Shown here one piece after another: positions 15,676 through 62,200 of a stretch of 64,000 bases of DNA. The stretch's first letter is position 1. Every line of letters starts with the position of its first letter. Source of the stretch: CBDBIG01 sp965205845 [NCBI: bacterium] (lineage in GTDB: Bacteria; SAR324); contig CBDBIG010000003.1 of assembly GCA_965205845.1 (NCBI GenBank), forward strand, positions 682,001 to 746,000, given 5' to 3'. A model generated the notes under the pieces. It saw only the letters and a list, made by a program, of their open reading frames with translations, was not told the DNA's origin and did no database searches. A program made the translations under genes and the position numbers.

Positions 15676-15697
15676 ACACAGATAAAAGAAGACAGAA

Positions 15698-17110: not shown

Positions 17111-17247
17111 TTTCCGGAAAATTTGTTACAGTTTCGCTTTTGTTGCGCTGATACATGGCATTGAAACCATCCCCTCCTCTTTATAATTTTAAAAACCACC
17201 GTTTAACCTATATCACTACTGATTAACATCAACCAGGAGCAACAATT

Positions 17248-18087: not shown

Positions 18088-18133
18088 GAGTTGACAAATT
18101 TTAAAACCTTATTTGTGAAAGGAGTCCCTATCT

Positions 18134-19375: not shown

Positions 19376-19381
19376 GCCAGC

Positions 19382-19580
19382 ATGGAATTGAGCGGTCTTC
19401 GAGTCCTGATTACAGGTGCTGGTTCGGGGCTGGGCGAAGCCAGTGCTGGACACCTTGCTTTTTCAAGGCGCAAAACCTTGTTTGCTCGACATGGATGCCG
19501 TGCGTGTTCAAAAGGTGGCCAGTCGGTTAAACGCCCCCCACGCTGTGGCAGATGTCTGTGATGAGGGTGCCGTTCAACAA
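19382..19580 (+). pseudogene. Truncated copy of the SDR dehydrogenase 5' end
   Basis: Starts ATGGAATTGAGC like the intact gene at 20896 and matches it for about 200 bases. An extra base in gctttttcaagg (intact: gcttcccaagg) shifts the frame, and the copy then joins the duplicated livF tail. It is a by-product of the tandem duplication, not a working gene. Confidence 0.88.
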
Positions 19581-19647
19581 GTACCGCAAGCGCTGGTTGT
19601 GAGAGTTGACAAATTTTAAAACCTTATTTGTGAAAGGAGTCCCTACT

Positions 19648-20889: not shown

Positions 20890-20895
20890 GCCAGC

Positions 20896-24786: not shown

Positions 24787-25797
24787 CTAGGGGTTTTTGC
24801 GGATCGCAAGTGCGATTCCACCTTGCAACATTCGCCATTCTGGCTGCTTTTGAACCTGAAAAGGCAACCGAAAGTGCTCGTTTAAAAACAAAGACAAGCC
24901 TGCCAGCCTACCCCCCCCACCCACCACACAGATACCCAATTCTTCCACATCTTGCAACAATGCCACAGGCAGTTTTCCTAAGGTATGGCGAATTGCAAGC
25001 ACTAGGGGTTCACAGGCATCAATGAGCACATCACGCACCTCATTGTCTTCAAGGTAAACCGTCTTTTCAATGCCATCGTTTACCCTCACACCCCCTACCT
25101 CGAGGCTACGTGGTGTTTTAAGTGGGTGCACCGACCCAATACGCCACTTAATTTTTTCGGCTTCAATAGGGCTAATGCTCAACAAATGCACCTCGGCCAG
25201 CTCACGCATCAAGGCTTGATCGAGTTGCTGACTGCCCCACGCAATGGGATGCCATAAGGCAACCTCATTTAGCATATATGCAAAAATGCGCGTGGTATTT
25301 GCGCCTATATCGAGGCACAATTGGCACACGCTAGCATCGCAATCTTTGCCCAACCCATGATAGATGGCGCGCCCCGCATCGATCCAGCGCAAGTTCCCAA
25401 AACCCAGTTTGTTGAATAAGGGCCGTTGCTGGTTACTGACGTGAGTACTTTCATCCTGGTAACGCAAGGCATACAAGGTGGACCAGCTGCGTAATGGCAA
25501 GTAGGTTTTGCGAACCCTCCGAACGCTTTCTTTTAAGGTGGCCTGCATAATGGCGCGTTGGGTTTTGTCGCCTTGCAAGTGCCCTTGCAGGGGCAAAAAA
25601 TGTTTCATACTTTTTGCCTGCAACAGCGTGTTCATGGCTTTCTCACCCGTTATTACGCGCATCCCACCTCGAGAGACAGCTCCCCAGCAAGCCGTGCTGG
25701 CATAAGCGGCACTGGGAGTGGCAGCACGGATGTTACATTGTCCCATTTTGACACACACAGCCCAATGCTTAAAACGGTTTTTAACCAGTGACCACAT
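24787..25797 (-). CDS. Divergent MreB-like actin homologue
   Basis: Protein of 336 residues in the mreB position upstream of mreC. The second half is recognisably MreB: LDIGANTTRIF (phosphate-2 loop), IEAEKIKWRIGS, and CVVGGGGRLAGLSLFLNEHF (adenosine motif). The first half is not: the DLGTANT phosphate-1 loop is replaced by VKMGQCNIRAATPSA, and the usual GGDEFD-type block reads AWGSQQLDQAL. Nucleotide binding or polymerisation may be changed. An AAGGCA lies near ATG 25797. Either the cell has another true MreB elsewhere, or this is an accepted drift in the only copy. Confidence 0.78.
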   Translation of the reverse strand: MWSLVKNRFKHWAVCVKMGQCNIRAATPSAAYASTACWGAVSRGGMRVITGEKAMNTLLQAKSMKHFLPLQGHLQGDKTQRAIMQATLKESVRRVRKTYLPLRSWSTLYALRYQDESTHVSNQQRPLFNKLGFGNLRWIDAGRAIYHGLGKDCDASVCQLCLDIGANTTRIFAYMLNEVALWHPIAWGSQQLDQALMRELAEVHLLSISPIEAEKIKWRIGSVHPLKTPRSLEVGGVRVNDGIEKTVYLEDNEVRDVLIDACEPLVLAIRHTLGKLPVALLQDVEELGICVVGGGGRLAGLSLFLNEHFRLPFQVQKQPEWRMLQGGIALAIRKNP

Positions 25798-28247: not shown

Positions 28248-28779
28248 CTGCCCTTGTGCTCAAAACTGCGGGTCATCAGAGCGTACCATGTTAAGGCACC
28301 GCCAACTTGTGCTCAAAGCCGCGGGTCATCAGAGCGTACCATGTTAAGGCACCGCCAACTTGTGCTCAAAACTGCGGGTCATCAGAGCGTACCATGTTAA
28401 GGCACCGCCAACTTGTGCTCAAAACTGCGGGTCATCAGAGCGTACCATGTTAAGGCACCGCCAACTTGTGCTCAAAACTGCGGGTCATCAGAGCGTACCA
28501 TGTTAAGGCACCGCCAACTTGTGCTCAAAACTGCGGGTCATCAGAGTGTACCATGTTAAGGCACCGCCAACTTGTGCTCAAAACTGCGGGTCATCAGAGC
28601 GTACCATGTTAAGGCACCGCCAACTTGTGCTCAAAGCCGCGGGTCATCAGAGTGTACCATGTTAAGGCACCGCCAACTTGTGCTCAAAACTGCGGGTCAT
28701 CAGAGTGTACCATGTTAAGGCACCGCCAACTTGTGCTCAAAACTGCGGGTCATCAGAGCGTACCATGTTAAGGCACCGC
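28221..28779. repeat. Tandem repeat, 53-bp unit, about ten copies
   Basis: Units start accatgttaaggc at 28285, 28338, 28391, 28444, 28497, 28550, 28603, 28656, 28709 and 28762. A first variant unit at 28221, 64 bases long, contains the last codons and stop of the RodZ-like gene. Units differ only in gcg/gtg and aaact/aagcc. There are no spacers, so this is not CRISPR. Confidence 0.95.
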
Positions 28780-36330: not shown

Positions 36331-36822
36331 ATGGAACCACCAGGGATTGTTCTGCCCGGAGCACTGCAAGGGGCTTATGCGCATCTTATCACCCACCCCA
36401 GTTATTATTTTTTTTATGGTCTCTATGCCGATTATGTACGTAACAATGCCTGGTTTTCGCTCCGTGAGCGTGCCCAACGCATTGGGCGGATGCTCCATAC
36501 AGTTCGCCCCTTAATGGCCTTAGAACCCGCTTTTCGCAAGAGCTTGCCCATGCGCTTGTTCAGCCGTAGAGAGCGTCTTAAGCTGGGGCATCCGCGCGAT
36601 GTAAGCGTGGCGTGGCGTGGCTTGCAGCAATTGGTTGCCACCTTAGGCACACCTGAGTTCGCGCAGCCGATACGTGAACGAACAAACAACCCGCACCCAG
36701 CAAGGCAAGGGTTAATCGCCCCCAGGGTTCATGTCTTGCATTGCGCCTTGCCGTTACACACACACCAGCCCTTACGCAAGGCACACGCTTTGAGCCCTTT
36801 TTGCTACAGGCTGTTAGCTTAG
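36331..36822 (+). CDS. Hypothetical protein
   Basis: 163-codon frame preceded by a strong AAGGGAGG seven bases before the ATG. The first third is rich in aromatic residues (YAHLITHPSYYFFYGLYADY), and the middle is Arg-rich (RLFSRRERLKLGHPRDVSVAWRG). The last third (NNPHPARQG onward) looks less like coding sequence and overlaps the glnD 3' end by 9 bases, tail to tail. I recognise no family. A good ribosome site is the best argument for it. Confidence 0.5.
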   Translation: MEPPGIVLPGALQGAYAHLITHPSYYFFYGLYADYVRNNAWFSLRERAQRIGRMLHTVRPLMALEPAFRKSLPMRLFSRRERLKLGHPRDVSVAWRGLQQLVATLGTPEFAQPIRERTNNPHPARQGLIAPRVHVLHCALPLHTHQPLRKAHALSPFCYRLLA

Positions 36823-39800
36823 GTTTTGCGATTTGTGTGTTTTGCTATGGCCAAGCACCCGTTGGCAGGCGAGCACAAAAGTGCCATTTTGCAATGCGTG
36901 GTGGCTTTGTGCATCCATGTAAAAATGGTCGCTAATTTCGCGGCCCACATTGGCCAAGGTAGCCTGGGGAACCTCCACTTGAAATGCATCAAACAACTGA
37001 CTTAATTGATAAAAAACAAAAGGCGCATCATGGAGCTGGATATGTATATAAGGCAGCCTTGTGGGTTTACGTTGATATCCTTCGGGGGTTTCTTGGACAG
37101 CGTAGCTTTTATCGTCTGCGGTATAAAAATGAATCCGAGGTTTTGCCCCAGTTGGCGCTGCACGATGAGAAGGAAACGCGTCGACACCTGGTGTACTCGA
37201 ACCCTGATCGACGTCAGGGCTGGGAGACAATGTGGGTGGGGTAAGCAGCGGGGGCGGCACATTGCGAATGCTCCATTCCATGTCACGGTTCCACGATTGG
37301 GGCAAAGAATCGATCGCTGCGGTTTGAAAGGCATAACAATACCCTGTCGCACCCCCTTTAAACCGAACAGGATTAAACTTGCCATTTACAATGTTAATCG
37401 CATGCACGCTGCGGCGGCTGAGTGCATAGGCCACCCGCGTATGCGATTGTTTTAAATTGCGCGTAAAAATTAAAATTTCCGTAAGACCCGTGGCGCTATT
37501 GGGCATCGAATCAACCAGGACATCATGGCTACGAAACCCCTCAAAACGCATGCTTTGCTTGGCCAATATGGCAGGTGGACAGCGCATAAGGTGGCGATTT
37601 GGAAATGCATGAAAAAACCAATCTAACAATGCCCCTTCTTTTTGGCTTAACAACAACAAGGTGGGCTGGGGGAGCAAGGCTTGCATGCGCTCTGCAAAGC
37701 GTTTTTCCAAGTACTGGACTTTTTGGTCGTTTGAATCGCCCATGGTTACCTGCAATTGCAAAGCTTCTAGGTTGGCCACATGCCCTTGCAATTGCTGCCA
37801 TACATCGGGGGCGTGTTGGCGCAAAGGGGCATAAAGGGCAGGTCCCATCCCCTGTTCGATGCATTTTTGCACCATCAGCTGAAAGCGGGTTTCGTATTGT
37901 TGTTCATTTTTTTGCACATCCAAACGCTGGTTAATCAGCTCCAAGGCCTCGTTCTCATTGGGAAAACCACGCATCTCTTCGAGCATCATGCAGGTGCGGG
38001 CAAAACGGTCGCGCAAGGCTTGCTGCTGCGGATAGTGTAAAGGGCCACACGCCCCCAAAGCGGCCAAGTTCATCATAAACAAAAGCAGCAGCGTTTCTAA
38101 GCGTTGTTCAACCAAGGCAAAGCAATGGGCAAGGGCTTCGTCGGTATAGCCCTTGTTGCCAAGCAATACCAAACTGCGGTGATGCAACACCAACAACGTG
38201 GCTTTTTCGCGCATTCCTTGCTGGGTAAACCCCATTTGTGCCATGCCGTGTTGCAAGCATTCGACCCCTGCTTGATGCTGCTTGGCCAGGTCTTCCATCG
38301 CTGCAATGCCACGCGTTCCTTCCAAGTTAGGATGGCTTTCAGGGGCCCCAAAATAGCAGCACACATGCAACAAGGCAGCGCATTTTAAGGCCAAAATATC
38401 CTCATCACGCAACATCTCATGCCACTGGGGGTATTCTTCTGCCAGGGAATTGAGTTCAATTTGGATTTGGGCTAGGGCTAAAAAAGCGGTCTGATGCAAG
38501 GCTGTATGGCTTTGGTAAGGACCTTGTGGGTATTTGCGCGCAGAATCGATGACGGGCAAAAAGCAACCCAGCAAGCTGCTGGTATGCCAATCAAAAGGAT
38601 TGGAGATGGCGCAGGTTTGCTCCAAAATATTCATGGCATGGGGTGCCAGCAAAATCTGCTGCCACCACGTATTTTCCTCGGCTGTAAGCGCAGGCAAAAG
38701 GGTTTTAGCGAGAGGCAGATGGGGAAGAATTTGGCACAAAGCATCTTGCAATGCTGGCGAGAAACACAAACCCGCTTGCGCTGCATGGGCTAGGGTTTCA
38801 AGCAAGGCCATGCGCGTTATGGTAGGTGGCACCAGCACCTTGGGTGTGGCTTTTATCCCTTGGAGTAAAGAGGCTTGCATGGCAGGGGTGGCAACGCCGT
38901 GTGTGGTGGTGGCCTCAATGGCCAAAATATGGCGTTGGGCGGGGTAAATATGGAGGGTTACATGGCTTAGCTGGGTGAGGGTGGTGGGTTCTAACGCGCG
39001 TTGAATCAGGGTTTTGGCGGTATTGTGTGCCTGTTGCAATAGTTGATGCAACAAGCACCACCCTGCTCCAGGGTTGGTGGTGTGCGGGTGCTGTGTAAAG
39101 GGAGGCGGCATGGCCACGCGATTGCGCTTTGCTGCTGCCAAATCAAACAACTGCTGGGAACGTTTGCTACTTTCGTGCTGGGTAAAGTCCGTATGATGGG
39201 CACTATTGGCGGCACGCATCACCCAGGCCAATTCAAGGGTACGCCCTAAATGTGCGCATTCCCATACCGAGAGCAACCCTTTTTTGTGGGCTGTTTGCAG
39301 CAAGCTGGCGGGGTGAAAATTGCCCTGGGAGGATCCCCAGGTGGCACCTGCCAACCACAGGGCGTTTTGAATGGCCCGCAAGCCCCCTTGCCCATTTTTT
39401 AAGCGCAAACCCCCTCCGCCACTGGGCTGCAGAGCAAGAGCGCTGAATTCTTGCATTTTTTTTTCAATGTACGCATTGCTGGGGAAAATATCCCAGACTT
39501 GTTGGCGTAATGCGCTCAAAATACCCACATCCCCCCCAAGGTTACGCCCTTCTAAAATGGAGGTTAAAGTGTGCAAGGTTTTAGGTTTGGTAAAGCGCGA
39601 AAGATCCTCGCCCAGTTCAAAGTACTGGTGGGCAGGGTTAAGGCCTACCGCGCGCAAAATTTCTTGCATCCGCACCACCACCTCACGCAGCAGCAGCGTT
39701 TTTGCAGAGGAATACGCGCGATCGCTCCCCGTGGCACCATGCTCCGCCATGCCATCTTCTTCGAGAACGATACAAGAACCGAGATCAAGGTCGGAATCAA

Positions 39801-40596
39801 AGCACAGTTCGCCGCGTCCATAGCCTCCACGGGCAAACATGCATAGCTGTGCATGAGCCCAGTGTGGTGTGGGTTCCCAATCATTGAGAGCTGCCACGGT
39901 ATTTTCAAGGGCGTGTCGTCGTGCTGCCTCTTGTTTGGCTGCGTTGTTTTTGCGGGCACTTTGCGGTGTTTTTAGGGGCATCGCTTGGCGATTGATGTTG
40001 CTGCGTAAGCGGGCTATGGATACCTCGCGTGAACGGTTGAGGCTCGAGTGACTGCGTATTTTTTTTTGGCGCACGGTCGCCAACCCTTGCTGAGCTTGGG
40101 CAAGCATCACAAAACGCATGGCCTCAAGTTCATTTAGGGCCTGGGTATGTACAAATTGAAGCAGCCCGTCCAATGCCAAGGCCATATCATGAATGGGCGC
40201 CATGGCAATGGGGTGGCTTCGCAGAAAATTTTGGCGTAACGAGGCTTGAATTTTCTTCCAAGCAGCACCGCCTTCACGGGTTAGCAAAGTGGTTCGCGCC
40301 TCGAGCCATTGACACCAGTCGCTTTCGCTGTGGCAGGCCTTTGGCAAGGCTGCTAACTGCTCATCCAAGGTTTGCAGCAATTTTTGGGTGAACGAGACAA
40401 CGGGAGTGCTGGCTGTCGCTTGATAACGTAAACCTTGCAGCAGTTCTGTGAGTGCTTGTTGGGGTTCCATAGAGAGCCATGGGAGTTGGGATGGAGGGGC
40501 ATTTTTAAGAAGCAACACTCTAGCATAAAGTGTACTGTGTTTAAGCATGCTTGGCATTTGCGCCCGTTGTACCCGTGCCCAAACAGGTGCTGACAT
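36814..40596 (-). CDS. glnD: GlnD-type [protein-PII] uridylyltransferase, enlarged, HD motif degenerate
   Basis: 1260 residues against ~860-950 for usual GlnD. The nucleotidyltransferase motif is intact near residues 257-272 (GGYGRGELCFDSDLDL). The HD phosphohydrolase region near residues 690-760 keeps HTALH but reads AALLHVCCYFG where the family has LHDIGKG, so the His-Asp metal pair is lost and UMP removal from PII is probably impaired. Two C-terminal ACT domains are visible: TEILIFTRNLKQSHTRVAYAL, split by a Pro/Ser-rich insert (LLTPPTLSPSPDV), and APFVFYQLSQLFDAFQVE. The ~250-residue N-terminal extension is not recognised. GlnD senses glutamine and sets PII state in nitrogen control. Confidence 0.85.
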   Translation of the reverse strand: MSAPVWARVQRAQMPSMLKHSTLYARVLLLKNAPPSQLPWLSMEPQQALTELLQGLRYQATASTPVVSFTQKLLQTLDEQLAALPKACHSESDWCQWLEARTTLLTREGGAAWKKIQASLRQNFLRSHPIAMAPIHDMALALDGLLQFVHTQALNELEAMRFVMLAQAQQGLATVRQKKIRSHSSLNRSREVSIARLRSNINRQAMPLKTPQSARKNNAAKQEAARRHALENTVAALNDWEPTPHWAHAQLCMFARGGYGRGELCFDSDLDLGSCIVLEEDGMAEHGATGSDRAYSSAKTLLLREVVVRMQEILRAVGLNPAHQYFELGEDLSRFTKPKTLHTLTSILEGRNLGGDVGILSALRQQVWDIFPSNAYIEKKMQEFSALALQPSGGGGLRLKNGQGGLRAIQNALWLAGATWGSSQGNFHPASLLQTAHKKGLLSVWECAHLGRTLELAWVMRAANSAHHTDFTQHESSKRSQQLFDLAAAKRNRVAMPPPFTQHPHTTNPGAGWCLLHQLLQQAHNTAKTLIQRALEPTTLTQLSHVTLHIYPAQRHILAIEATTTHGVATPAMQASLLQGIKATPKVLVPPTITRMALLETLAHAAQAGLCFSPALQDALCQILPHLPLAKTLLPALTAEENTWWQQILLAPHAMNILEQTCAISNPFDWHTSSLLGCFLPVIDSARKYPQGPYQSHTALHQTAFLALAQIQIELNSLAEEYPQWHEMLRDEDILALKCAALLHVCCYFGAPESHPNLEGTRGIAAMEDLAKQHQAGVECLQHGMAQMGFTQQGMREKATLLVLHHRSLVLLGNKGYTDEALAHCFALVEQRLETLLLLFMMNLAALGACGPLHYPQQQALRDRFARTCMMLEEMRGFPNENEALELINQRLDVQKNEQQYETRFQLMVQKCIEQGMGPALYAPLRQHAPDVWQQLQGHVANLEALQLQVTMGDSNDQKVQYLEKRFAERMQALLPQPTLLLLSQKEGALLDWFFHAFPNRHLMRCPPAILAKQSMRFEGFRSHDVLVDSMPNSATGLTEILIFTRNLKQSHTRVAYALSRRSVHAINIVNGKFNPVRFKGGATGYCYAFQTAAIDSLPQSWNRDMEWSIRNVPPPLLTPPTLSPSPDVDQGSSTPGVDAFPSHRAAPTGAKPRIHFYTADDKSYAVQETPEGYQRKPTRLPYIHIQLHDAPFVFYQLSQLFDAFQVEVPQATLANVGREISDHFYMDAQSHHALQNGTFVLACQRVLGHSKTHKSQNLS

Positions 40597-41039
40597 GCTC
40601 TAAGCATCAACCATAGGGTAATCTACGCTTCTTTATGCTAAAATCATGCTACGGCGGCGTTTTAGCAAGGCCGGAATATCCCAAAAAATGCAGTTTTTGT
40701 TGGCTACGTAAAACCACATTTGTGTTACCCTAGATCCTATTAAGGTGTGCTGTGTACGCGGGATTTGATATCGACCCACTTTCTGCCCGTACTAATGTGG
40801 ACGCACCTTGTTTTGCAACCCTCCCAATTGCAACCCTCCCAATTGCATGGCGTGCCAAGGGAATTGGGGATACGACCCTGGCCAAGGCAGCAGGTTGTTG
40901 AGGGTGCTAGGGATTGTGCTTGGGTTGGCGGGGGATGCCTAAATTTTGAACCATTTTTGTGGACTGCCATCCTTTCCGCACCATGGCACGACATAAAAAA
41001 CAACGGGGTTTTGCTATTTTTACACCATTGTCGCTTGTC
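40597..41039. other. Intergenic region upstream of the R-M insertion
   Basis: About 440 bases between glnD (minus) and the duplicated rnr leader. A 15-16-bp tandem repeat (aaccctcccaattgc) occurs twice near 40816-40850. No gene recognised. It presumably holds the glnD promoter. Confidence 0.4.
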
Positions 41040-41218
41040 ACTACCCCCCATGCCCTTAGCCCTTAGATTGACCTTTTTAGAATAAATGCCTTTACAAAGT
41101 ACTTGGCTATGCATAAATACCAAAGCCTTTGTGAGCCTTTTAAAAAAAGCATGAGCAAGCCCTTTGACCCCCGTTAAAAAAACCATCACTCCCCCTCAAA
41201 TTGTTAAAAACTCAGAGA
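41040..41218 (+). repeat. Direct repeat flanking the R-M genes, left copy (rnr 5' end)
   Basis: Matches 43025-43202 base for base over the first ~100 bases, then with scattered changes up to about 41218. It contains the rnr leader and the first ~20 codons. An extra A (atgagcaagccc versus atgagcagccc) puts the copied rnr start out of frame, and that frame ends after eight codons. Confidence 0.93.
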
Positions 41219-42144
41219 AAAAATGGATTAACAAAATCCATACTGGTGATGCGCAAAAAATATTAAGGGACATGCCATCAGATTTTATTGATCTAAGTTT
41301 TTGGTCCCCGCCATATTTTGTAGGTAAGGAGTATGAGAAGTACCTATCTTTTGATGATTGGAAGAGACTGCTTGAAGGGGTTGTTTGTGGGCATGCCCGT
41401 GTTATGAGGGACGGTGCTTTTATGGTGATAAACATCAACGATATTTTATGCTTTCCTGATCCGAGCATGCCTAGGTATATGTCTAACAATATTGGTAATA
41501 AGAGGGTACCCGTCACCAGGCAAGATGCATTAGATGCCAAACGTAAAAACCCTGATGCAAACCGTTATGAACTAGCAAAAATTCTTGGGTGTAGCGAACA
41601 AACTGTACAGCGCAGACTTGAGCATAACAATATACGTGGTGGGAAGCAGGCTACCGCCACAAAAGTTTTGTCAGTAGCTGGAATGCTACAAGCGTGGAGT
41701 GAAGCAGCGGGGCTCTATCTGTATGACCGCCGCATTTGGCATAAAGACCCATGCTGGGCAAATAGCCGATGGCATAGCAATTCATATAGATCGATTGATG
41801 AGTTTGAATATCTTTTCATATTCTGGAAACCAGGCATTGTTGACATTGACCGGTCTCGCCTTAAAAAAAACGAATGGGCTGAATGGGGGTCACGGGGGGT
41901 TTGGAATATAAAATCAATTCGCCACAATAACCGCCATGAGAGTGAATTTCCTGAAATGCTGGCGGAACGAGTTATACGCCTTTTGTCTAATCCTGAAGGT
42001 GTTGTGCTAGACCCGTTTGTTGGTTCCGGCACCACAACTGCCGTTGCCCGCCGCCTCAAACGCAGATATGTTGGCATAGACAGGCTTGATAAATATGCCG
42101 TAATTGCCAGGGATAGAACGAATGCAATCGATAAAACGGATTGA
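41164..42144 (+). CDS. DNA methyltransferase of an SfiI-like type II R-M system
   Basis: Beta-class amino-methyltransferase of 326 residues. The catalytic SPPY is at 48-51, the AdoMet motif VVLDPFVGSGTTT near residue 280, and a helix-turn-helix-like insert (RYELAKILGCSEQTVQRR) sits at about 137-155. SPPY points to N4-cytosine modification. The first ~17 residues (TPVKKTITPPQIVKNSE) come from the duplicated rnr 5' end, and the only usable start in front of the conserved domain is TTG 41164 inside that copy, since a TGA lies at 41152 in frame. The gene overlaps the endonuclease gene by 23 bases. Confidence 0.88.
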   Translation: MTPVKKTITPPQIVKNSEKKWINKIHTGDAQKILRDMPSDFIDLSFWSPPYFVGKEYEKYLSFDDWKRLLEGVVCGHARVMRDGAFMVININDILCFPDPSMPRYMSNNIGNKRVPVTRQDALDAKRKNPDANRYELAKILGCSEQTVQRRLEHNNIRGGKQATATKVLSVAGMLQAWSEAAGLYLYDRRIWHKDPCWANSRWHSNSYRSIDEFEYLFIFWKPGIVDIDRSRLKKNEWAEWGSRGVWNIKSIRHNNRHESEFPEMLAERVIRLLSNPEGVVLDPFVGSGTTTAVARRLKRRYVGIDRLDKYAVIARDRTNAIDKTD

Positions 42145-42763
42145 GGATGCCGAGAGATCTTGCATCAGATTAGTGTCTCGCGCCCTACGAGATTATAGGG
42201 ATAAGGCGGTTGAAATCTTCAGAGAAGAATCCGATAAACCTGGTAATATAGCAGAAGATGTAACAAGGGAAGCTATGGATGCTCTTGGTACGTCACGGGT
42301 TCCGATACGGCTGTATGGTAAAGTTGATGATAAACGTGCCGCGATAGTCTTTTTGTCGGATAGAGAAGTTGAAGTCGCCATGATGGTTGACCCCAAAGCT
42401 GAGAAGGATGGAAATACCGCGACCATTCAAATGTCTCAGACATCAATGCAAATTAGGCAATATAGGCAGGGGGAGGAAATTTGTGTTAATGGTACGCTAC
42501 CGCCGTTTATTGAAAGAGAAGGCAAAAAACTTCAAACCATAACCATAATTGTAAAATATATTTACACCGAAATAACGACGCAGAAGTTTATCTTGGAAAA
42601 GATTAAAGTCGCCTGCATACCTAACGGTCTACTTCAGGAAAGTTACAACCCCAATGCACAAGATGGTTTTTGGAGGGTAGGCCGTAATGCACCTTCATTG
42701 GGGGAGGATTTTCGGGTGCGCCTCTCATTTAGTGATCTTCAAAAAAAGCAGAATGGCGAGTAG
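42122..42763 (+). CDS. SfiI-like type II restriction endonuclease
   Basis: 213 residues from ATG 42122, overlapping the methyltransferase end, so the pair is translationally coupled. The whole length lines up with SfiI as I recall it: an N-terminal helix (IRLVSRALRDYRDKAVEIF), IAEDVTREAMDAL, the catalytic segment MMVDPKAEK (Asp and Lys of a PD-(D/E)xK site; VDAKAS in SfiI), IQMSQTSMQ, then ESYNPNAQDGFWRVGRN and RVRLSFSDLQ. SfiI is a tetramer cutting GGCCN5GGCC. The specificity here is probably the same or close, but untested. An intact catalytic core and length suggest it works. Confidence 0.78.
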   Translation: MQSIKRIEDAERSCIRLVSRALRDYRDKAVEIFREESDKPGNIAEDVTREAMDALGTSRVPIRLYGKVDDKRAAIVFLSDREVEVAMMVDPKAEKDGNTATIQMSQTSMQIRQYRQGEEICVNGTLPPFIEREGKKLQTITIIVKYIYTEITTQKFILEKIKVACIPNGLLQESYNPNAQDGFWRVGRNAPSLGEDFRVRLSFSDLQKKQNGE

Positions 42764-42889
42764 TTGAGGTTTAAACAACTTCCAAATGGCAAATTTGAGG
42801 GGGATATCAGACCATAAGCAAGAACAACTCACCTCAAAACCAATGATAGAGGCAAAACCTCACAGGTATTAACCGTTAAAAGCAAAACG

Positions 42890-42922
42890 TCGGGCAGGCG
42901 TGCGCATGCAAGCCTGCGCCCG
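42890..42922 (+). terminator. Hairpin downstream of the R-M pair
   Basis: Inverted repeat CGGGC-AGGC / GCCTGC-GCCCG around loop gtgcgcatgcaa, with a 2-base bulge, followed by gaaaattt. It is a plausible end of the R-M transcript though the T-run is weak. The rest of 42764-43024 shows no gene; a TATAAT at 43010-43015 could be a new promoter for rnr. Confidence 0.4.
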
Positions 42923-43024
42923 AAAATTTGGCAACATGAATCTTGGATTAGGTCGCGGTGAGAAAAATTAGCGGCGCTTAATAACACAGAAAAAAATGTG
43001 ACTTTGGTATATAATTCCCTCTTA

Positions 43025-43202
43025 ACTACCCCCCATGCCCTTAGCCCTTAGATTGACCTTTTTAGAATAAATGCCTTTACAAAGTACTTGGCTATGCATA
43101 AATACCAAAGCCTTTGTGAGCCTTTTAAAAACAGCATGAGCAGCCCTTTGACCCCCGTTAAAAAAACCGTCCCCCCCCTCGAAATTGTCAAAAATTCAGA
43201 GA
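43025..43202 (+). repeat. Direct repeat flanking the R-M genes, right copy (rnr leader and start)
   Basis: The intact counterpart of 41040-41218, offset by 1985 bases at the left edge and 1984 after the one-base difference. It runs into the functional rnr gene, so this is the original sequence or the copy that kept the gene. Confidence 0.93.
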
Positions 43203-45277
43203 ATAACACATCTGCCCAAGAACAAACATGGGAGGGCCCTTTGTTTGTGCACCCTGGCGGCTTTGGTTTTTTGGAATGCGAGGAACGCCAGGAATCCTTG
43301 TTTATTCCCGCACGTTTTATGAAGGGAGCCCTCGATGGCGACTGGGTGTTGGCGGGGCTCCTTCCGCCCGAAGCTAGGCGCGAGCGTGAGGCTGGGCAAG
43401 TGCTTGAAGTGCTGCGCCGCCGTTGCACCCGATTGGCTGCCCGCTTAGAGTGGGATCAAGGCGAATTATGGGCCCTGCCTTTTAATGCCAAACTCCCCGA
43501 TGTATGGGTAGAACCCGCCAGCATGCCCAAGGCCAAAGATGGCGATGTGGTCGAGGTGGAAATTCACTATTATCCGCAAGATTCGAAAGAGTCCCCCGAA
43601 GGGCGAGTAGCCAAAGCATTACCAAACAAGGACAACCCTTATGCATGGGCGCAGCGGGTTACCCTCGATCTTAATCCACCACTAGAATTTCCTAAAACGT
43701 GCTTGAAAGAGGCCTCCCAAGCCAGCGAGGGCATCACCTATAAAGGGCGTGAAGATTTATGCCATTTGCCTTTTGTTACCATTGATGGCGAGGATGCACG
43801 CGATTTTGACGATGCCATTGCTTGGATAGCCAACAAAGAAGGCAGCCACGCAGGCGGCGTGTTGTATGTGGCCATTGCTGATGTGGCAGAATTGGTGGCA
43901 CCCCGAAGTGCTATGGATGAGGAGGCCTGTACACGCGGATTTAGTTATTATTATCCGACCCACATGGTGCCCATGTTACCCGAGCGTCTGTGCACCGATT
44001 TATGCAGCCTACGCCCCCAGGTAGCACGCCACACCCTTACTTGCGAAATGCATTTGGATGCCCTGGGCAACACCCTGCAAAGCCGCGTGTTTGAAAGCGT
44101 GATTGAAAGCCGTGCAAGGCTAACCTATGCCCAAGTGATGCAATTATTTGAGACACAGCGCGCCAGCGGCCCCATTACCCAAGAAATCGCCAAGATGCTG
44201 TTCCGCTTGCGCCCTATGGCAAAAATCATGGAGCACATGCGTCAAAACCGTGGTGGGCTTCGCTTTACTTTTCCTGAAAGGCGCTTTGAAATCAACGACC
44301 AAGGGATGCCCGTCAACATTCACTTGGCATGGCCCAGCGAGAGCACCAAACTCATTGAACAGTGCATGCTTCAGGCGAACGAGGCGGTGGCAGAATACGC
44401 AGCCCAGCAAAAACTCCCGTTTTTACGTCGTGTACACGAAGCCCCTGCGGCCGATGCCTTGGCCACCTTGCAAGAAAATTTGGGCGCTTTTGGGATTCCT
44501 ATCTCCCCCAAAGGGCTCGCCACCCCCGGGGTTTTGGGGCAGGTGCTTAAAGCCATTGCAAAGCACGATGCCCAAGAACGCCTCGAAATCATGGTGCTGC
44601 GCGCGTTGAAGCAAGCGCGCTATGCCGCGACATCTTTAGGGCATTTTGCCTTGGGCGCCCAGCATTACGCACATTTTACCTCGCCCATTCGACGCTACCC
44701 CGACCTGTTGCTTCACCGCGTGCTTAAAGCCCATTTGCGCAAAGCCCCCAAAATCCCCCAGCTCCCTTCCCATGCGGGTTCGTTACTTTCCCAAGCGGAA
44801 CGCGTGGCCGATGAAGCGAGTGGGCGCGTGAACAAGCTGTTTCAGGTGTTGTATATGGAAGGCTACCTTGGTAAAAGTTTTATGGCGACTGTGGCCAATA
44901 TTTCCGACCAAGGGGCATGGCTGCGCTTACAAGACCCACCCGTTGAAGGCTTGCTCCCCTTGGTGCTTTTTCCCAAACAAACGCGCTACCAACAAGATGG
45001 CAAGTGTATTCTTGTGCCCAAGCAGCCAGCCATCGAAATTGGAACCTTGCTCGAATGCCAGCTGGTGCATGCCGAGCGCCAAAGCTATAGCCTTGAATTT
45101 TTGTACGTTAAGCAGGTACCGTCCGCCGATCCCCCCAAAAAGCGAGCACTAAAACCGCCCAGCCCCGTGCTAAAAAAAAGAGCAAAAAGAGCCATCCCCA
45201 AAAGAATGCAGGCCTATAAGGGGAAGGGCACCCCCCATCCATCCCTAGCCTTATTTCGTTCTGGGGATACGCCATAA
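43136..45277 (+). CDS. rnr: Ribonuclease R (RNB family exoribonuclease)
   Basis: 3'-5' exoribonuclease of 713 residues from ATG 43136. The order is a cold-shock/OB region near residues 35-80 (GPLFVHPGGFGFLE), the RNB catalytic domain with the metal-binding acidic cluster DGEDARDFDDAI, SYYYPTHMVPMLPERLCTDL and HYAHFTSPIRRYPDLLLHR, an S1 domain (GAWLRLQDPPVEGLLPL), and a Lys-rich tail. It degrades structured RNA and helps rRNA quality control. The start is uncertain: in-frame TTG 43088 and ATG 43094 lie upstream inside the repeated leader. No strong ribosome site is seen. Confidence 0.94.
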   Translation: MSSPLTPVKKTVPPLEIVKNSENNTSAQEQTWEGPLFVHPGGFGFLECEERQESLFIPARFMKGALDGDWVLAGLLPPEARREREAGQVLEVLRRRCTRLAARLEWDQGELWALPFNAKLPDVWVEPASMPKAKDGDVVEVEIHYYPQDSKESPEGRVAKALPNKDNPYAWAQRVTLDLNPPLEFPKTCLKEASQASEGITYKGREDLCHLPFVTIDGEDARDFDDAIAWIANKEGSHAGGVLYVAIADVAELVAPRSAMDEEACTRGFSYYYPTHMVPMLPERLCTDLCSLRPQVARHTLTCEMHLDALGNTLQSRVFESVIESRARLTYAQVMQLFETQRASGPITQEIAKMLFRLRPMAKIMEHMRQNRGGLRFTFPERRFEINDQGMPVNIHLAWPSESTKLIEQCMLQANEAVAEYAAQQKLPFLRRVHEAPAADALATLQENLGAFGIPISPKGLATPGVLGQVLKAIAKHDAQERLEIMVLRALKQARYAATSLGHFALGAQHYAHFTSPIRRYPDLLLHRVLKAHLRKAPKIPQLPSHAGSLLSQAERVADEASGRVNKLFQVLYMEGYLGKSFMATVANISDQGAWLRLQDPPVEGLLPLVLFPKQTRYQQDGKCILVPKQPAIEIGTLLECQLVHAERQSYSLEFLYVKQVPSADPPKKRALKPPSPVLKKRAKRAIPKRMQAYKGKGTPHPSLALFRSGDTP

Positions 45278-45388: not shown

Positions 45389-45509
45389 GTGCCCATTCAC
45401 ATGCTTTGCCACCACTAAGGACAATGGCGCAAAAAAGCGGGTGTGCCCATTCACATGGTTTTACACTGGTCAAAATTTAATGGTTGTGCCCATTCACATG
45501 CTTTGCCAC
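45389..45509 (+). repeat. Left-end motif copies of the Mu-like element (three)
   Basis: gtgcccattcacatg starts at 45389, 45443 and 45486. The first and third continue ctttgccac, the second gttttacac. Such clusters resemble transposase-binding sites L1-L3 of Mu. Confidence 0.75.
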
Positions 45510-52126: not shown

Positions 52127-52251
52127 CACACTACAGTTTGCTGTAAAGGTCAACTCTCATCGTGCCATGGCAATCCCATTTTTGGGGGAATTGTCCCTTG
52201 GCTGTTTATAATCCTCGACGGGCTTGGGCTAAATGGGAATTTTTCCCCCCG

Positions 52252-52760
52252 AGGCGCACCGCTCTCACCTGATTGTTGTGGCTTGGTTTAGCCCCCAGCT
52301 CAGAAAAACCCGTTTCACCACGCTGGGAGGCGGGAAAACCCCTGGGGCGCGCTGCTCTCATCTGATTGTTGTGGCTTGGTTTAGCCCCCAGTTCAGAAAA
52401 ACCCGTTTCACCACGCTGGGAGGCGGGAAAACCCCCTGGGGCGCACCGCTCTCATCTGATTGTTGTGGCTTGGTTTAGCCCCCAGCTCAGAAAAACCCGT
52501 TTCACCACGCTGGGAGGCGGGAAAACCCCCTGGGGCGCACCGCTCTCACCTGATTGTTGTGGCTTGGTTTAGCCCCCAGCTCAGAAAAACCCGTTTCACC
52601 ACGCTGGGAGGCGGGAAAACCCCTGGGGCGCACCGCTCTCACCTGATTGTTGTGGCTTGGTTTAGCCCCCAGTTCAGAAAAACCCGTTTCACCACGCTGG
52701 GAGGCGGGAAAACCCCCTGGGGCGCACCGCTCTCATCTGATTGTTGTGGCTTAGTTTAGC
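52252..52760. repeat. Tandem repeat, 93-94-bp unit, about 5.5 copies
   Basis: gattgttgtggctt recurs at 52271, 52364, 52458, 52552, 52645 and 52739. The last unit overlaps the 3' end of the iron-binding protein gene: its final codons (complement of tttagcccc-agctc...tttcaccacgctggga) are present in altered form in every unit. A single-base length change in a C-run (cccc/ccccc) gives the 93/94 alternation. Confidence 0.95.
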
Positions 52761-53815
52761 CCCAGCTCGTCAACCAGTTTCACCACGCTGGGAATGTGTT
52801 TTAGCAGCTGGGTTAATGGCAGTGGGTCGCTTTTGAATACCCCCCATGTTTTAAGTAACGGGGGCCACGGCGTATTGGGCACAACGGGGTGCTCGTAATT
52901 TTTTTGAGCGTACAAATTTTGCCCTGCAGGAGAGAGCAAAAATGCAAGGAGCTGGGTAGCAGCTTGTTTGTGCTTGGCATGCTTTAAAATGGCAGCACCG
53001 CTGATGTTGACATGGGTGCCATGCCCTTGCTTGGGAAAAATAAGGGTAACCGCATCGGCCCACGGACGTTGTTTGGGGTTTTCGAGCATTTTGCCCATAT
53101 AGTAGCTGTTGGCAATGGTTACATCGCAAAGGCCTTCGTAAATGGCACGCATTTGTGCGCGGTCGTTACCTTGGGGTTTTCGGGCAAAGTTTTGCTTTAA
53201 ACGTTGAAGCCATTGTTTGGTTTTTTTCGCCCCCATATGCGCCAACAGCGAGGCAAACAGACTCACATTGTAAGGGTGGTGCGCAGAGCGGATGCATACT
53301 TTGCCCCTCCATTTTGGGAGGGCTAGGTCGGCATAGCGGGTAATATCACCAGGTTTGGTCCGCGCTTTGGATGCATAAATAACCCGTGCACGTAAGCTTA
53401 CCCCCCACCACAAATGCTCAGGATGGCGGTAGGCTGCGGGCACCGCTTTGGTGAATTTTGCAGGTGGCACACGGTATAGCAGCTGCTGTTTGGCAGCCTC
53501 TGCCAAAGGGCGAACATCGGTGGTGAGCAGCATATCGGCTTTGGTCCTCGTGCCCTCATGGCGAATGCGCTGCACAAGGCCTTTTTTGGCGTACACCACA
53601 TTCACCTTAATGTGGGTTTTTTGGGTGAAAGCCTGCAATAGCGGCTTGATGAGGAATGGTTGGCGCTGTGAGTACACATTTACCTCTTGGGCAAAGGCAT
53701 GAAGGGGTGCAAGCAACAAGCAGCACCCTACGCCCAGTGCCCCCAAGGCATGGCTTTGTTGTGCACGGCTGATGGGATTGGGGTAGTGGGCGAAAAAACG
53801 TTTGATAAAAAACAT
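52751..53815 (-). CDS. Iron(III) ABC transporter substrate-binding protein
   Basis: Periplasmic binding protein of 354 residues of the FbpA/FutA type. The signal peptide is GALGVGCCLLLAPLHAFA, then QEVNVYSQR begins the mature form. Ligand-binding Tyr positions appear in IANSYYMGKM near residue 240. LWWGVSLRARVIYASK and LALPKWRGKVCIRSA are typical lobe sequences. AGGAG precedes ATG 53815. No permease or ATPase gene is adjacent, so it must work with components elsewhere. A candidate Fur box lies ~135 bases upstream. Confidence 0.88.
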   Translation of the reverse strand: MFFIKRFFAHYPNPISRAQQSHALGALGVGCCLLLAPLHAFAQEVNVYSQRQPFLIKPLLQAFTQKTHIKVNVVYAKKGLVQRIRHEGTRTKADMLLTTDVRPLAEAAKQQLLYRVPPAKFTKAVPAAYRHPEHLWWGVSLRARVIYASKARTKPGDITRYADLALPKWRGKVCIRSAHHPYNVSLFASLLAHMGAKKTKQWLQRLKQNFARKPQGNDRAQMRAIYEGLCDVTIANSYYMGKMLENPKQRPWADAVTLIFPKQGHGTHVNISGAAILKHAKHKQAATQLLAFLLSPAGQNLYAQKNYEHPVVPNTPWPPLLKTWGVFKSDPLPLTQLLKHIPSVVKLVDELGLN

Positions 53816-54093: not shown

Positions 54094-56049
54094 CTAGCGG
54101 GGTGGTTCTTGCCAAACGTTGTGTTGCTTTAACAGTGCAACCAAGCGTTCAACGGCATTTTCGGTCGGGACGCCGCGCTCCATGCAGTGCTGGCCTTTAT
54201 ACAAATTGACCTTTCCTGGGGCACCCCCTACGTAGCCAAAATCGGCATCTGCCATTTCCCCAGGCCCGTTGACAACACAGCCCATAACAGCAATTTTGAC
54301 CCCACTTAAATGCTGGGTGCGTGCTTGAATGCGCTGGGTGGTTTCTTGCAGGTCAAACAACGTTCGCCCGCACGACGGGCATGAGATATACTCGGTGCGA
54401 TAGCTGCGCAAACGGGCAGCTTGAAGCAAGGTTTGGATGCGTTCTGCCATGGGGTGCTGGCTGGGTAGGTTGGCTACCAGCAAGGCATCCAACAGGCCAT
54501 CGATGGCCAGCGCACCCACTTGCGAACTCAAACCGAGGAGGTCGTTGTTGCCATAAGAGGGTGGGAGCCATGCGCCTAAGGGCCAGTTGAGGTTTTGGCT
54601 TTGAAGAACTTGTGCCAAATGGCGCAAAGGACGCAGCAGGTGGAATCCATGCACAACCAACAACATCCCTCCACGCCATTGCTTGCCTTGTTGTAGCAAG
54701 CATTGCAAAGCGGGAGAAGCGATTTCTTGTGCTTGTAGGCACAAGGTCCATGCTTGTGGGGGCGCCACGCTGTGACCGGCTTGGGGGTGAGGAGACCCAT
54801 TTGGGGTGGGTTGATTTAGCCGCAAAAGTGCTTGGGGCACGGTAAGCATCCCCCCTTGGATTGGGGTGTTTTGGCCGTCTTGTGGGGGCAAAAAAACGCC
54901 ATCGAGCCATGAGGCCTTGGTTTGTGAAGCCTCGGGATTTTTAAAAGGAAGCGCAAAAGGCTCAACAAGGGGAGAATCGACCCCAAACAAAGCCACGGGG
55001 TTGCCCTGCCCCACGGCTACCCGTTGCTGTGGGGTGGTAGTGGCAAGGTGCACCAGGCGTGTGCTCCGCCGTTCAAAGTGAATGGGGAGAGCATAATGCT
55101 GCTCCCAATGGGGGCCTTTGTCGGCATTTTTGACCTGCTTGATTAAGTTGCGCGCCGCGGGCAGCTCGTTTACCGCGGGTTCGGTTAAGGAAACCCGCAC
55201 CGTGTCCCCCAAACCATCCATTAGCAAAGTGCCAATTCCCACTGCCGATTTCACCCGCCCTGCCAAGCCATCGCCCGCCTCGGTAACCCCCAAGTGAAAT
55301 GGATAATCCATCCCCTCTGCTTGCATCCGCAAGGCGAGCAAGCGATAGGCCTGGACCACCACCACAGGATTGGAGGATTTCATCGAGAGCACCAACTGCT
55401 CCCAGCCATGCTGGCGGAATATGCGCAAAAATTCCATCGCGCTTTCCACCATCCCCTCTGGTGTATCGCCATAGTGATTCATGATCCGATCGGAGAGCGA
55501 GCCATGGTTCACCCCCACCCGTACCGCGCGTTGATGCTGCTTGACCAGCCGAATAAAAGGCACCAAGGCTTCCTCGATGCGAGCCATTGCCTCATGGTAT
55601 TCATCGTTCGAGTACGTGCGCTGCACAAAGCGCTTTTGATCGACATAATTGCCTGGGTTAATGCGTATTTTTTCAACCCAAGGCACACAGGCCAAAGCCA
55701 GGCGTGGGTTAAAGTGAATATCCGCCACCAAGGGGACATCCAAGCCTTCCTCACGCATGCGACGGCGAATTTCATCGAGGGCATCCACGTCGCGTTGGGT
55801 GGGTAGGGTAAGGCGAATGATTTCGCACCCTGCCTTGGCCAAGGCCAGCATTTCTTGGATCACGGCATCCACCTGCCATGTAATGGCGGTGAGCATCGAT
55901 TGGATGCGAACGGGGTTTTGCCCGCCAATGCCTACCTTACCCACCATCACTTGGCGGGTTGTGCGGCGGCTGGCACGCAGCGGTGCCAAAAAATTTTCCA
56001 CCTTATCGTGTGGGGGTTGATCCTCGGTGCTCGGGGCGTTCATCGCCAT
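54094..56049 (-). CDS. ispG: 4-hydroxy-3-methylbut-2-enyl-diphosphate synthase, long form
   Basis: [4Fe-4S] enzyme of the MEP isoprenoid pathway. The TIM-barrel N-terminus has VMVGKVGIGGQNPVRIQSM, VPLVADIHFNPRLAL and VEKIRINPGNY. The iron-sulphur domain has ISCPSCGRTLFDL and MGCVVNGPGE with three Cys. At ~650 residues it is of the long class with a ~230-residue insert (about 330-560) between the two domains, as in plants, Chlamydia and Bacteroidetes, not the ~370-residue type of E. coli. The start lies inside the tandem array: ATG 56049 (MAMNAPSTED) is likely, 56043 and 56103 are possible. Confidence 0.92.
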   Translation of the reverse strand: MAMNAPSTEDQPPHDKVENFLAPLRASRRTTRQVMVGKVGIGGQNPVRIQSMLTAITWQVDAVIQEMLALAKAGCEIIRLTLPTQRDVDALDEIRRRMREEGLDVPLVADIHFNPRLALACVPWVEKIRINPGNYVDQKRFVQRTYSNDEYHEAMARIEEALVPFIRLVKQHQRAVRVGVNHGSLSDRIMNHYGDTPEGMVESAMEFLRIFRQHGWEQLVLSMKSSNPVVVVQAYRLLALRMQAEGMDYPFHLGVTEAGDGLAGRVKSAVGIGTLLMDGLGDTVRVSLTEPAVNELPAARNLIKQVKNADKGPHWEQHYALPIHFERRSTRLVHLATTTPQQRVAVGQGNPVALFGVDSPLVEPFALPFKNPEASQTKASWLDGVFLPPQDGQNTPIQGGMLTVPQALLRLNQPTPNGSPHPQAGHSVAPPQAWTLCLQAQEIASPALQCLLQQGKQWRGGMLLVVHGFHLLRPLRHLAQVLQSQNLNWPLGAWLPPSYGNNDLLGLSSQVGALAIDGLLDALLVANLPSQHPMAERIQTLLQAARLRSYRTEYISCPSCGRTLFDLQETTQRIQARTQHLSGVKIAVMGCVVNGPGEMADADFGYVGGAPGKVNLYKGQHCMERGVPTENAVERLVALLKQHNVWQEPPR

Positions 56050-57045
56050 GCGTTGTCCTGTGTGGGGGTTGATCTTTTTGTGCCTGGGGGCGCTCATCGC
56101 CATGCGTTGTCCTGTGTGGGGGTTGATGCTCGGTGCTCGGGGGCGTTCATCGCCATGCGTTGTCCTGTGTGGGGGTTGATGCTCGGTGCTCGGGGGCGCT
56201 CATCGCCATGCGTTGACCTGTGTGGGGGTTTTGTGCCTGGGGGCGCTCATCGCCATGCGTTGTCCTGTGTGGGGGTTGATGCTCGGTGCTCGGGGGCGTT
56301 CATCGCCACGCGTTGTCCTGTGTGGGGGTTGATGCTCGGTGCTCGGGGGCGTTCATCGCCACGCGTTGTCCTGTGTGGGGGGTGATGCTCGGTGCTCGGG
56401 GGCGCTCATCGCCATGCGTTGTCCTGTGTGGGGGTTGATGCTCGGTGCTCGGGGCGCTCATCGCCATGCGTTGTCCTGTGTGGGGGTTGATGCTCGGTGC
56501 TCGGGGCGCTCATCGCCATGCGTTGTCCTGTGTGGGGGTTGATGCTCGGTGCTCGGGGCGTTCATTGCCACGCGTTGTCCTGTGTGGGGGTTTTGTGCCT
56601 GGGGGCGCTCATCGCCATGCGTTGTCCTGTGGGGGGGGTGATGCTCGGTGCTCGGGGCGCTCATCGCCATGCGTTGTCCTGTGTGGGGGTTGATGCTCGG
56701 TGCTCGGGGCGCTCATCGCCATGCGTTGTCCTGTGTGGGGGTTGATGCTCGGTGCTCGGGGCGTTCATTGCCACGCGTTGTCCTGTGTGGGGGTTTTGTG
56801 CCTGGGGGCGCTCATCGCCATGCGTTGTCCTGTGTGTGGGTTGATGCTCGGTGCTCGGGGGCGTTCATTGCCACGCGTTGTCCTGTGTGGGGGTTGATGC
56901 TCGGTGCTCGGGGGCGCTCATCGCCATGCGTTGTCCTGTGTGGGGGTTGATCCTCGGTGCTCGGGGGCGTTCATCGCCATGCGTTGTCCTGTGTGGGGGT
57001 TGATCCTTTTGTGCCTGGGGGCGTTCATTGCCACGCGTTATCTCT
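56020..57045. repeat. Tandem repeat, ~53-bp unit, about 18 copies, seeded on the ispG start
   Basis: The core catgcgttgtcctgtgtggg recurs every 48-55 bases. Two unit types alternate irregularly: one with gatgctcggtgctcgg and a shorter one with ttttgtgcctggg. Single-base changes in G-runs alter length and frame. The ispG-proximal unit supplies the start codon and first ~15 codons of ispG. Confidence 0.95.
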
Positions 57046-60589: not shown

Positions 60590-60955
60590 AAGCACGCCAG
60601 GGTTCAAGCCTTGCTGCCGTTTTTTTTTAGCGGGCTCTGACAAAGCACGCCAGGGTTCAAGCCTTGCTGCCGTTTTTTTTTTAGCGGGCTCTGACAAAGC
60701 ACGCCAGGGTTCAAGCCTTGCTGCCGTTTTTTTTTGAGCGGGCTCTTACACGGCACGCCAGGGTTCAAGCCTTGCTGCCGTTTTTTTTTGAGCGGGCTCT
60801 GACAAAGCACGCCAGGGTTCAAGCCTTGCTGCCGTTTTTTTTTTAGCGGGCTCTGACAAAGCACGCCAGGGTTCAAGCCTTGCTGCCGTTTTTTGAGCGG
60901 GCTCTGACAAAGCACGCCAGGGTTCAAGCCTTGCTGCCGTTTTTTGAGCGGGCTT
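60590..60955. repeat. Tandem repeat, ~54-bp unit with T-run, seven copies
   Basis: cacgccagggttcaagcc recurs at 60593, 60646, 60700, 60754, 60808, 60862 and 60913. Each unit has a T-run of 6 to 10, which sets unit length to 51-54. On the minus strand the units can be read as an 18-residue peptide repeat (KKKRQQGLNPGVLCQSP). Confidence 0.95.
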
Positions 60956-61547: not shown

Positions 61548-61846
61548 AACTTGTTCACCTGACCCACGGCGCAAGATAACACATCCGCCCCTTGTATAGA
61601 CTGCACTTGTACGCACAATAAGGCAACGCCGGTAAAGCACAAAAAAATTTCTGAACCGGTCCTATTTAGATGACGGGTTCAAATACTTCCTAAACGATTG
61701 TTTTTAGCGATGGTAACCGTGCTGATGGGGCACTGTTGCGCGGATCGCGCCACGCACATTTTTTGCCAAACAGCCCAAAATGCCCCTTTGGGACCCCGCT
61801 TAACCTGCCCAACACCCGCGACTTGCCCGTAGGATTGTGAGACTCG

Positions 61847-62200
61847 CGCTTGCCCGGCCGCGACGGCGAAAAACCGAGCAGGTAAGCGGATTTGCTCGAG
61901 CGGGTTTGTTTCACATTCTACCATCCGCGACTTAGGTCGCGATTGAGACCGCGCTTGCCCGGCCGCGACGGCGAAAAACCGAGCAGGCAAGCGGATTTGC
62001 TCGAGCGGGTTTGTTTCACATTCTACCATCCGCGACTTAGGTCGCGATTGAGACCGCGCTTGCCCGCCGCGACAGCGAAAAACCCAGCAGGTAAGCGGAT
62101 TTGCTCGAGCGGGTTTGTTTCACATTCTACCATCCGCGACTTAGGTCGCGATTGAGACCGCGCTTGCCCGCCGCTACAGCGAAAAACCCAGCAAACCGCG
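61847..62200. repeat. Tandem repeat, 104-105-bp unit, 3.4 copies, seeded on the UxaA gene end
   Basis: cgcttgcccg starts at 61847, 61952, 62057 and 62161. The fourth, partial unit runs into the 3' end of the UxaA-family gene: its last codons (complement of acagcgaaaaacccagca) recur in the units, where the stop TAG reads TCG. Units contain their own inverted repeat, cgcgac-ttag-gtcgcg. Confidence 0.93.

What the first reader, a model, noticed from the sequence alone, without database searches (positions are those of the whole stretch)
41040..43202. R-M genes inserted into the rnr 5' end with a long target duplication, and a methyltransferase that borrows rnr's first codons
Seen: ~180 bp (rnr leader plus ~20 codons) stand on both sides of the methyltransferase-endonuclease pair; the first ~100 bp of each copy are the same. 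In the left copy one extra A throws the rnr start out of frame, and the methyltransferase frame opens (after TGA 41152) through the rnr-derived codons TPVKK..PP..IVKNSE into the enzyme. The only in-frame start before the domain is TTG 41164, in the rnr copy. Known: some R-M gene complexes insert with long target duplication, keeping the target gene intact. Inference: insertion was by this route, and the host gene supplied the expression and start signals, so loss of the R-M unit by recombination between repeats would restore plain rnr.
Basis: partly seen in the sequence, partly recalled or inferred. Interest (0 to 1): 0.78.

Follow-up and report, generated by a model that had tools for sequence, protein, structure and literature searches.

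The report
Restriction genes lodged in rnr start
A pair of DNA-cutting and DNA-protecting genes sits at the start of the RNase R gene between two copies of that gene's first 180 letters, and the protecting enzyme appears to begin inside the borrowed start of the host gene.

Summary
An imperfect direct repeat (41040-41222 / 43025-43206; 95%, BLAST E 1e-75) brackets a low-GC methyltransferase-endonuclease pair; the first 107 columns are identical and all 9 differences fall in the last 77. The endonuclease is SfiI-family (Pfam E 1.4e-44) and keeps SfiI's four predicted active-site residues. The methyltransferase frame runs through the rnr-derived codons; its only ATG/GTG/TTG start ahead of the domain is TTG 41164 inside them. 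New here: a PADLOC family profile, a plasmid relative and a viral relative begin to match at residues 20-25, just after the rnr-derived stretch, so rnr codons seem to have taken the place of the enzyme's own start. Best reading: an R-M unit inserted with long target duplication (a known kind), the downstream copy keeping rnr whole and the upstream copy giving the methyltransferase its 5' end. Not shown: an empty site in a relative (none found), which start is used, a promoter, or excision. The window is rich in tandem duplications, so an older duplication is a live rival. A 13-nt perfect inverted repeat around the genes is unexplained.

The parts
41040..41222 (+). Left copy of the rnr leader and first ~25 codons (imperfect direct repeat)
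   Evidence: 95.1% to 43025-43206, first 107 columns identical
41157..41157 (+). Extra A relative to the right copy; puts the rnr start ATG 41151 out of frame with the methyltransferase
   Evidence: alignment and translations (position within the AA pair is arbitrary)
41164..42144 (+). Methyltransferase (N6_N4_Mtase; SPPY and DPFVGSGTT motifs), TTG start inside rnr-derived codons
41164..41222 (+). rnr-derived N-terminal codons of the methyltransferase (LTPVKKTITPPQIVKNSE, against LTPVKKTVPPLEIVKNSE in rnr)
42122..42763 (+). SfiI-family restriction endonuclease (ATG 42122; TTG 42104 possible), overlapping the methyltransferase end
42764..43024 (+). Low-GC tail of the inserted unit without an ORF of 60 aa, with a G+C-rich hairpin at 42890-42923
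   Evidence: 42.1% GC over 42764-43015; fold of 42860-42945, z -1.4, not significant
41190..41202 (+). Left arm of a perfect 13-nt inverted repeat (TCCCCCTCAAATT)
   Evidence: 22 of 1000 resamples hold one by chance
42792..42804 (+). Right arm of the 13-nt inverted repeat (AATTTGAGGGGGA)
43025..43206 (+). Right copy of the rnr leader and first codons
43136..45277 (+). rnr, RNase R (ATG 43136; in-frame ATG 43094 possible), open throughout
   Evidence: TIGR02063 E 2.7e-154, though 515 bits is under that model's cut-off of 598
36814..40596 (-). glnD-like gene, divergent neighbour on the left side of the locus
   Evidence: weak match, best E 1.3e-10

Best explanation
A horizontally acquired two-gene Type II restriction-modification unit (methyltransferase first, then an SfiI-family endonuclease) inserted at about codon 25 of rnr with duplication of the roughly 180 bp that hold the rnr leader and first codons. 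The downstream copy leaves rnr whole with its leader. The upstream copy supplies the 5' end of the methyltransferase: the enzyme has no common start codon of its own and is read in the frame of rnr's codons. In the simplest history the methyltransferase first began at rnr's ATG; one extra A now separates that ATG from the frame, so translation would start at TTG 41164 (an rnr leucine codon), possibly by re-initiation at the short rnr-start ORF that ends at TAA 41175-41177. Shown: the repeat, the fusion, open genes with their motifs, deviant composition. Inferred: the insertion route, promoter use, the start codon, and that recombination between the repeats would delete the unit and leave plain rnr.
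For: Repeat of 184 columns, E 1.2e-75, unique in the window as a separated pair. R-M genes at 43-44% GC, third-position GC 0.39-0.40, against 0.50-0.59 in rnr, glnD, lnt, an acyl-CoA dehydrogenase and a periplasmic binding-protein gene. SfiI family hit E 1.4e-44; alignment to 2ezv over residues 8-213 keeps E, D, D and K at SfiI E55, D79, D100, K102, the active site predicted in PMC548270 (passages). Methyltransferase yardsticks start at residue 20 (PADLOC PDLC03260, profile position 7, E 6.6e-123), 23 (Geoalkalibacter plasmid, 52.8%) and 25 (viral contig, 54%). No trace of the end of the repeat was found before the right copy, as expected of a clean target duplication. Long target duplications, of the order of 100 bp, are reported for R-M units (PMC3874152, passage).
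Against: No empty site seen; no close relative of the host found. The copies do not diverge evenly: 0 of 107 columns against 9 of 77, which simple drift since insertion does not predict and which needs gene conversion, unequal constraint or a donor-derived stretch. Tandem duplications abound in this window. No promoter stands out. The two methyltransferase relatives have N-termini of different length, and their own starts are annotated or assumed by me, not proven.
Confidence: 0.68

Rival explanations
1. The rnr 5' end was first duplicated in tandem, as other stretches of this window were, and the R-M genes entered later at the junction of the two copies.
For: Many tandem duplications in the window: two of kilobase size (13883-17116, 18069-21097) and six arrays with periods of 53-104 bp.
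Against: Insertion would have to hit the junction of the two copies almost exactly, or have trimmed the remains: no leftover of the repeat was found at the right end of the insert.
Confidence: 0.13
2. The unit arrived on a DNA from a related strain that already held the methyltransferase fused to its own rnr 5' end, and entered by homologous recombination at rnr; the diverged 3' part of the left copy is donor sequence.
For: Differences are confined to the last 77 columns, and 6 of 10 ungapped differences in the codon stretch 41164-41223 are at third positions, as between two diverged coding sequences.
Against: Few differences, and no donor found; drift in the left copy with gene conversion of the leader gives the same picture.
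Confidence: 0.14
3. The methyltransferase is not started at TTG 41164: it is made from the rnr ATG by a +1 shift near CCC CGT TAA (41169-41177), or the extra A is a sequencing error and the enzyme is a plain fusion starting at the rnr ATG, or a rare ATT/ATC/ATA start is used. This concerns the start only and can hold together with the best explanation.
For: Apart from the extra A the enzyme frame and the rnr frame are the same; no Shine-Dalgarno-like stretch is seen before TTG (by eye).
Against: The three genes of the locus are open over their full length, so nothing else there points to base-call trouble; many of the 17 starts listed for comparison also lack a clear Shine-Dalgarno stretch (by eye). 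Raw reads were not available.
Confidence: 0.35

Closest known systems
Insertion of R-M gene complexes with long target duplication (Nobusato et al. 2000; Furuta et al. 2010; neither read, seen only as cited in passages of PMC3874152, PMC3031569 and PMC1643837)
   Same: A lone R-M unit of low GC between direct copies of a stretch of target DNA of the order of 100 bp, target gene left whole
   Different: Here the duplicated stretch holds a gene start, and the methyltransferase reads through it as its own N-terminus; no empty site has been compared
SfiI-type R-M systems (R.SfiI, PDB 2ezv)
   Same: Endonuclease aligned over most of its length with all four predicted catalytic residues kept; its neighbour is an amino-methyltransferase with SPPY
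   Different: Predicted base-reading residue R218 is kept but S210 is Ala in the alignment, so the site may differ; methyltransferase N-terminus is rnr-derived

Membership tests
R-M insertion with long target duplication | R-M genes between direct repeats of target DNA, of the order of 100 bp | tested here: met
   184 columns, 95.1%
R-M insertion with long target duplication | Empty site with one copy in a close relative | not tested
   No close relative found
R-M insertion with long target duplication | No transposase or IS within the unit | tested here: met
   Between the copies the only ORFs of 60 aa or more lie within or across the two R-M genes (the overlapping frames were not searched against families); no terminal inverted similarity beyond resamples (194 of 300 as good), apart from the internal 13-nt repeat. 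The flank 40597-41039 was not searched for IS remains.
SfiI-family Type II endonuclease | PF11487 above curated cut-off | tested here: met
   153.1 bits, cut-off 25
SfiI-family Type II endonuclease | Active-site residues E55, D79, D100, K102 | tested here: met
   Read from the alignment with the residue numbers of PMC548270
SfiI-family Type II endonuclease | Cleavage of GGCCNNNNNGGCC as a tetramer | not testable with these tools
   Three such sites in the window against 1.2 expected, so no avoidance
Amino-methyltransferase of a Type II system | N6_N4_Mtase profile, catalytic SPPY and AdoMet-binding motif present | tested here: met
   (motif meaning recalled)

The most novel reading that the evidence does not exclude
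The R-M unit is a start-capturing element: it inserts behind a host gene's first codons so that the methyltransferase is made as an in-frame fusion under the host gene's control while the duplicated copy keeps the host gene alive, and the repeats make it removable at a stroke; the later extra A tunes methyltransferase translation down to a weak TTG start.
Probability: 0.25. Interest if true: 0.68.

Novelty: new variant of a known kind. Interest (0 to 1): 0.45.

Why it matters
How R-M units without transposases move, and how they come to be expressed in a new host without killing it, is to my knowledge poorly understood. A unit whose methyltransferase is built on the target gene's own first codons shows one way in which insertion with long target duplication could solve both problems in one step, and gives a concrete locus on which reversal by recombination can be measured.

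Tried and rejected
Whole genome of the window: none held. Relatives of the host by RNase R: the genome-contig scan, which looks for exact short peptides of the query and so sees close relatives, gave one Candidatus Nomurabacteria locus at 28%; in 398 Pseudomonadota genomes 63 matched at E <= 1e-90, at 31-38% identity; one search covered the 78 held genomes of the class of G223, all of which bear handles already given, so it added no new genome (1 of 78 at E <= 1e-100, the known G058). The long IspG matched 0 of 398 at E <= 1e-120 (no positive control). The host's phylum was not settled, and I had no way to genomes outside Pseudomonadota except the Nomurabacteria handle, which I did not use as a centre.

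SfiI family PF11487: 0 of 398 and 0 of 1, no control genome rang. Methyltransferase at E <= 1e-40: 0 of 398, likewise without a control. The endonuclease had no match in plasmids or phages by tblastn, and none of 5 pattern hits in viral contigs held. The methyltransferase also has hosts of weaker matches: at least 5000 plasmid records (capped) and 309 phage records, all under 60% identity; only the two best relatives were aligned. DNA of the two genes: one 83-bp match to the Geoalkalibacter gene in plasmids; the locus: none in phages. An exact 27-mer of the repeat: 0 viral contigs; RNase R in viral contigs: nothing.

Promoters: one site found on the minus strand where shuffles give 5.5 on average; with a weight matrix written from recall, the best site within the repeat scores 6.2 against a resample median of 7.5, and TATAAT at 43010 in the insert's tail 8.5 against 7.9. 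RNA folds of the two start regions are unremarkable (z -1.6 and 0.3); a small hairpin just behind the junction has z -2.3. Terminal inverted similarity of the inserted unit: no better than resamples. Avoidance of SfiI sites: none. PMC3120642 and PMC12707154 were looked through by term and held nothing on this point.

Full report
Observation. The repeat is real and is not chance: 41040-41222 and 43025-43206 align over 184 columns at 95.1% with E 1.2e-75; the ungapped search finds the same in two overlapping pieces. Of 40 self-matches of 40 bp or more in the window (E <= 1e-6) the others belong to tandem arrays or tandem duplications; this is the only pair parted by unrelated sequence (1802 bp). 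The first 107 columns are identical, and the 9 differences (6 substitutions, 3 single-base indels) all lie in the last 77; if spread evenly this has a chance of 3.9e-4.

Reading frames. In the right copy ATG 43136 opens MSSPLTPVKKTVPPLEIVKNSENN and runs on to 45277 as RNase R. In the left copy an extra A makes ATG 41151 read MSKPFDPR and stop at TAA 41175-41177. The frame that continues into the methyltransferase opens after TGA 41152 and reads LTPVKKTITPPQIVKNSEKKWINKIHTGD from TTG 41164. No other ATG, GTG or TTG stands before ATG 41272; rare start codons do. In both copies a further in-frame ATG lies 42 bp upstream of the rnr ATG (41109, 43094), so rnr may start earlier than stated.

What lies between. 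The first gene is an amino-methyltransferase (PF01555, E 1.6e-37; PADLOC Type II methyltransferase PDLC03260, E 6.6e-123) with SPPY and DPFVGSGTT present. The second is an SfiI-family endonuclease (PF11487, 153 bits against a cut-off of 25; PDB 2ezv, E 1e-17). Read with the residue numbers of the SfiI model paper (PMC548270, passages), the alignment keeps E55, D79, D100 and K102; of the two predicted base-reading residues named in the passage R218 is kept and S210 is Ala. ATG 42122, with AGGGA before it, is the likelier endonuclease start; it overlaps the methyltransferase end by 23 bp. Both genes are at 43-44% GC with third-position GC of 0.39-0.40; five other genes have 0.50-0.59 and a second methyltransferase in the window 0.48. 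The stretch behind the endonuclease is equally poor in GC (42% over 42764-43015).

The fusion. Three yardsticks of the methyltransferase begin to match just behind the rnr-derived codons: the family profile at residue 20 (its position 7, so if the profile starts where its members do, their start falls near residue 14), the Geoalkalibacter plasmid protein at residue 23 and a viral-contig protein at residue 25. Residues up to 18 are those that match rnr. So the enzyme's own start seems to have been replaced by rnr codons rather than merely preceded by them. The plasmid and viral relatives start differently from each other, so the exact length of the lost piece is unknown.

How it most likely works. 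An R-M unit inserted near codon 25 of rnr and the roughly 180 bp ahead of that point were duplicated. The right copy keeps rnr whole; the left copy gives the methyltransferase its leader and first codons. Since the two frames agree apart from the extra A, the simplest history is a fusion from the rnr ATG, later parted from it by one base; translation would now begin at the rnr leucine codon TTG 41164, perhaps helped by ribosomes that end at TAA 41175-41177, 11 bp further on. These steps on expression are inference. No promoter stands out from shuffled or resampled sequence in or near either copy, and by eye Shine-Dalgarno-like stretches are weak before many of the 17 starts listed. Recombination between the 107 identical bp would delete the unit and leave plain rnr; that too is inference, and known biology of R-M units (recalled) predicts that such loss would harm cells once methylation is diluted out.

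Evidence against and rivals. No close relative of the host was reached: one Candidatus Nomurabacteria locus in genome contigs and identities of 31-38% among the 63 matches in 398 Pseudomonadota genomes; re-searched 78 of these. So the empty-site test, which defines insertion with long target duplication, was not done. The window holds two kilobase-scale tandem duplications and six arrays with periods of 53-104 bp, so the rnr 5' end may have been doubled first; against this, no remnant of the repeat was found at the right end of the insert. The uneven divergence calls for gene conversion of the leader, stronger constraint there, or a donor-derived 3' part; third positions hold 6 of the 10 ungapped differences in the codon stretch, which fits two coding sequences but is a small number.

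An unexplained detail. A perfect 13-nt inverted repeat, TCCCCCTCAAATT at 41190-41202 and its complement at 42792-42804, brackets the R-M genes; the left arm lies in the part where the left copy departs from the right one. 22 of 1000 resampled sequences and 2 of 113 other stretches of the window hold such a repeat, and it was found by looking, so it is a lead only.

Comparison with the known. A review states that some R-M systems insert with long and variable target duplications of the order of 100 bp (PMC3874152, passage); PMC3031569 says that R-M systems of all types can insert with long and variable target duplications, and PMC1643837 names the Helicobacter pylori case (passages; also PMC2749054, passage). 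Of the primary papers, Furuta 2010 is not held and Nobusato 2000 was not looked up. Four searches of the held library (listing 17 of 17, 20 of 37, 15 of 454 and 1 of 1 papers) listed none whose title, abstract opening or read passages join such an insertion with a methyltransferase started in target-gene codons; this is not proof of absence. I therefore call it a new variant of a known kind, with the membership itself resting on anatomy.

Noticed in passing
window 13883-17116 and 18069-21097: Two kilobase-scale tandem gene duplications close to each other: a periplasmic binding-protein gene (copies 88% alike) and an AMP-binding enzyme gene (97.6%).
   Followed up: partly
window 4868-5098, 28253-28779, 52245-52793, 56008-57039, 60590-60945, 61838-62193: Six tandem arrays with periods of 80, 53, 94, 53, 54 and 104 bp and up to 20 copies in 64 kb.
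   Followed up: no
window 5210-6028: A second amino-methyltransferase, best PADLOC match an orphan methyltransferase, just behind an 80-bp tandem array.
   Followed up: no
window 24787-25797: MreB-like protein that matches MreB models only over its second half, in front of mreC.
   Followed up: partly
window 54094-56103: Long IspG, with an internal insert of a kind known from Chlamydiae and Bacteroidetes (recalled); no match at E <= 1e-120 in 398 Pseudomonadota genomes, without a positive control.
   Followed up: partly
window 45389-45500: GTGCCCATTCACATG three times within 112 bp just behind rnr; 0.27 expected in the whole window with up to 2 mismatches.
   Followed up: partly
window 41560-41646: The methyltransferase and both relatives share a stretch (NRYELAKILGCSEQTVQRRLEHNNIRGGK here) that looks like a helix-turn-helix (judged by eye).
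   Followed up: no
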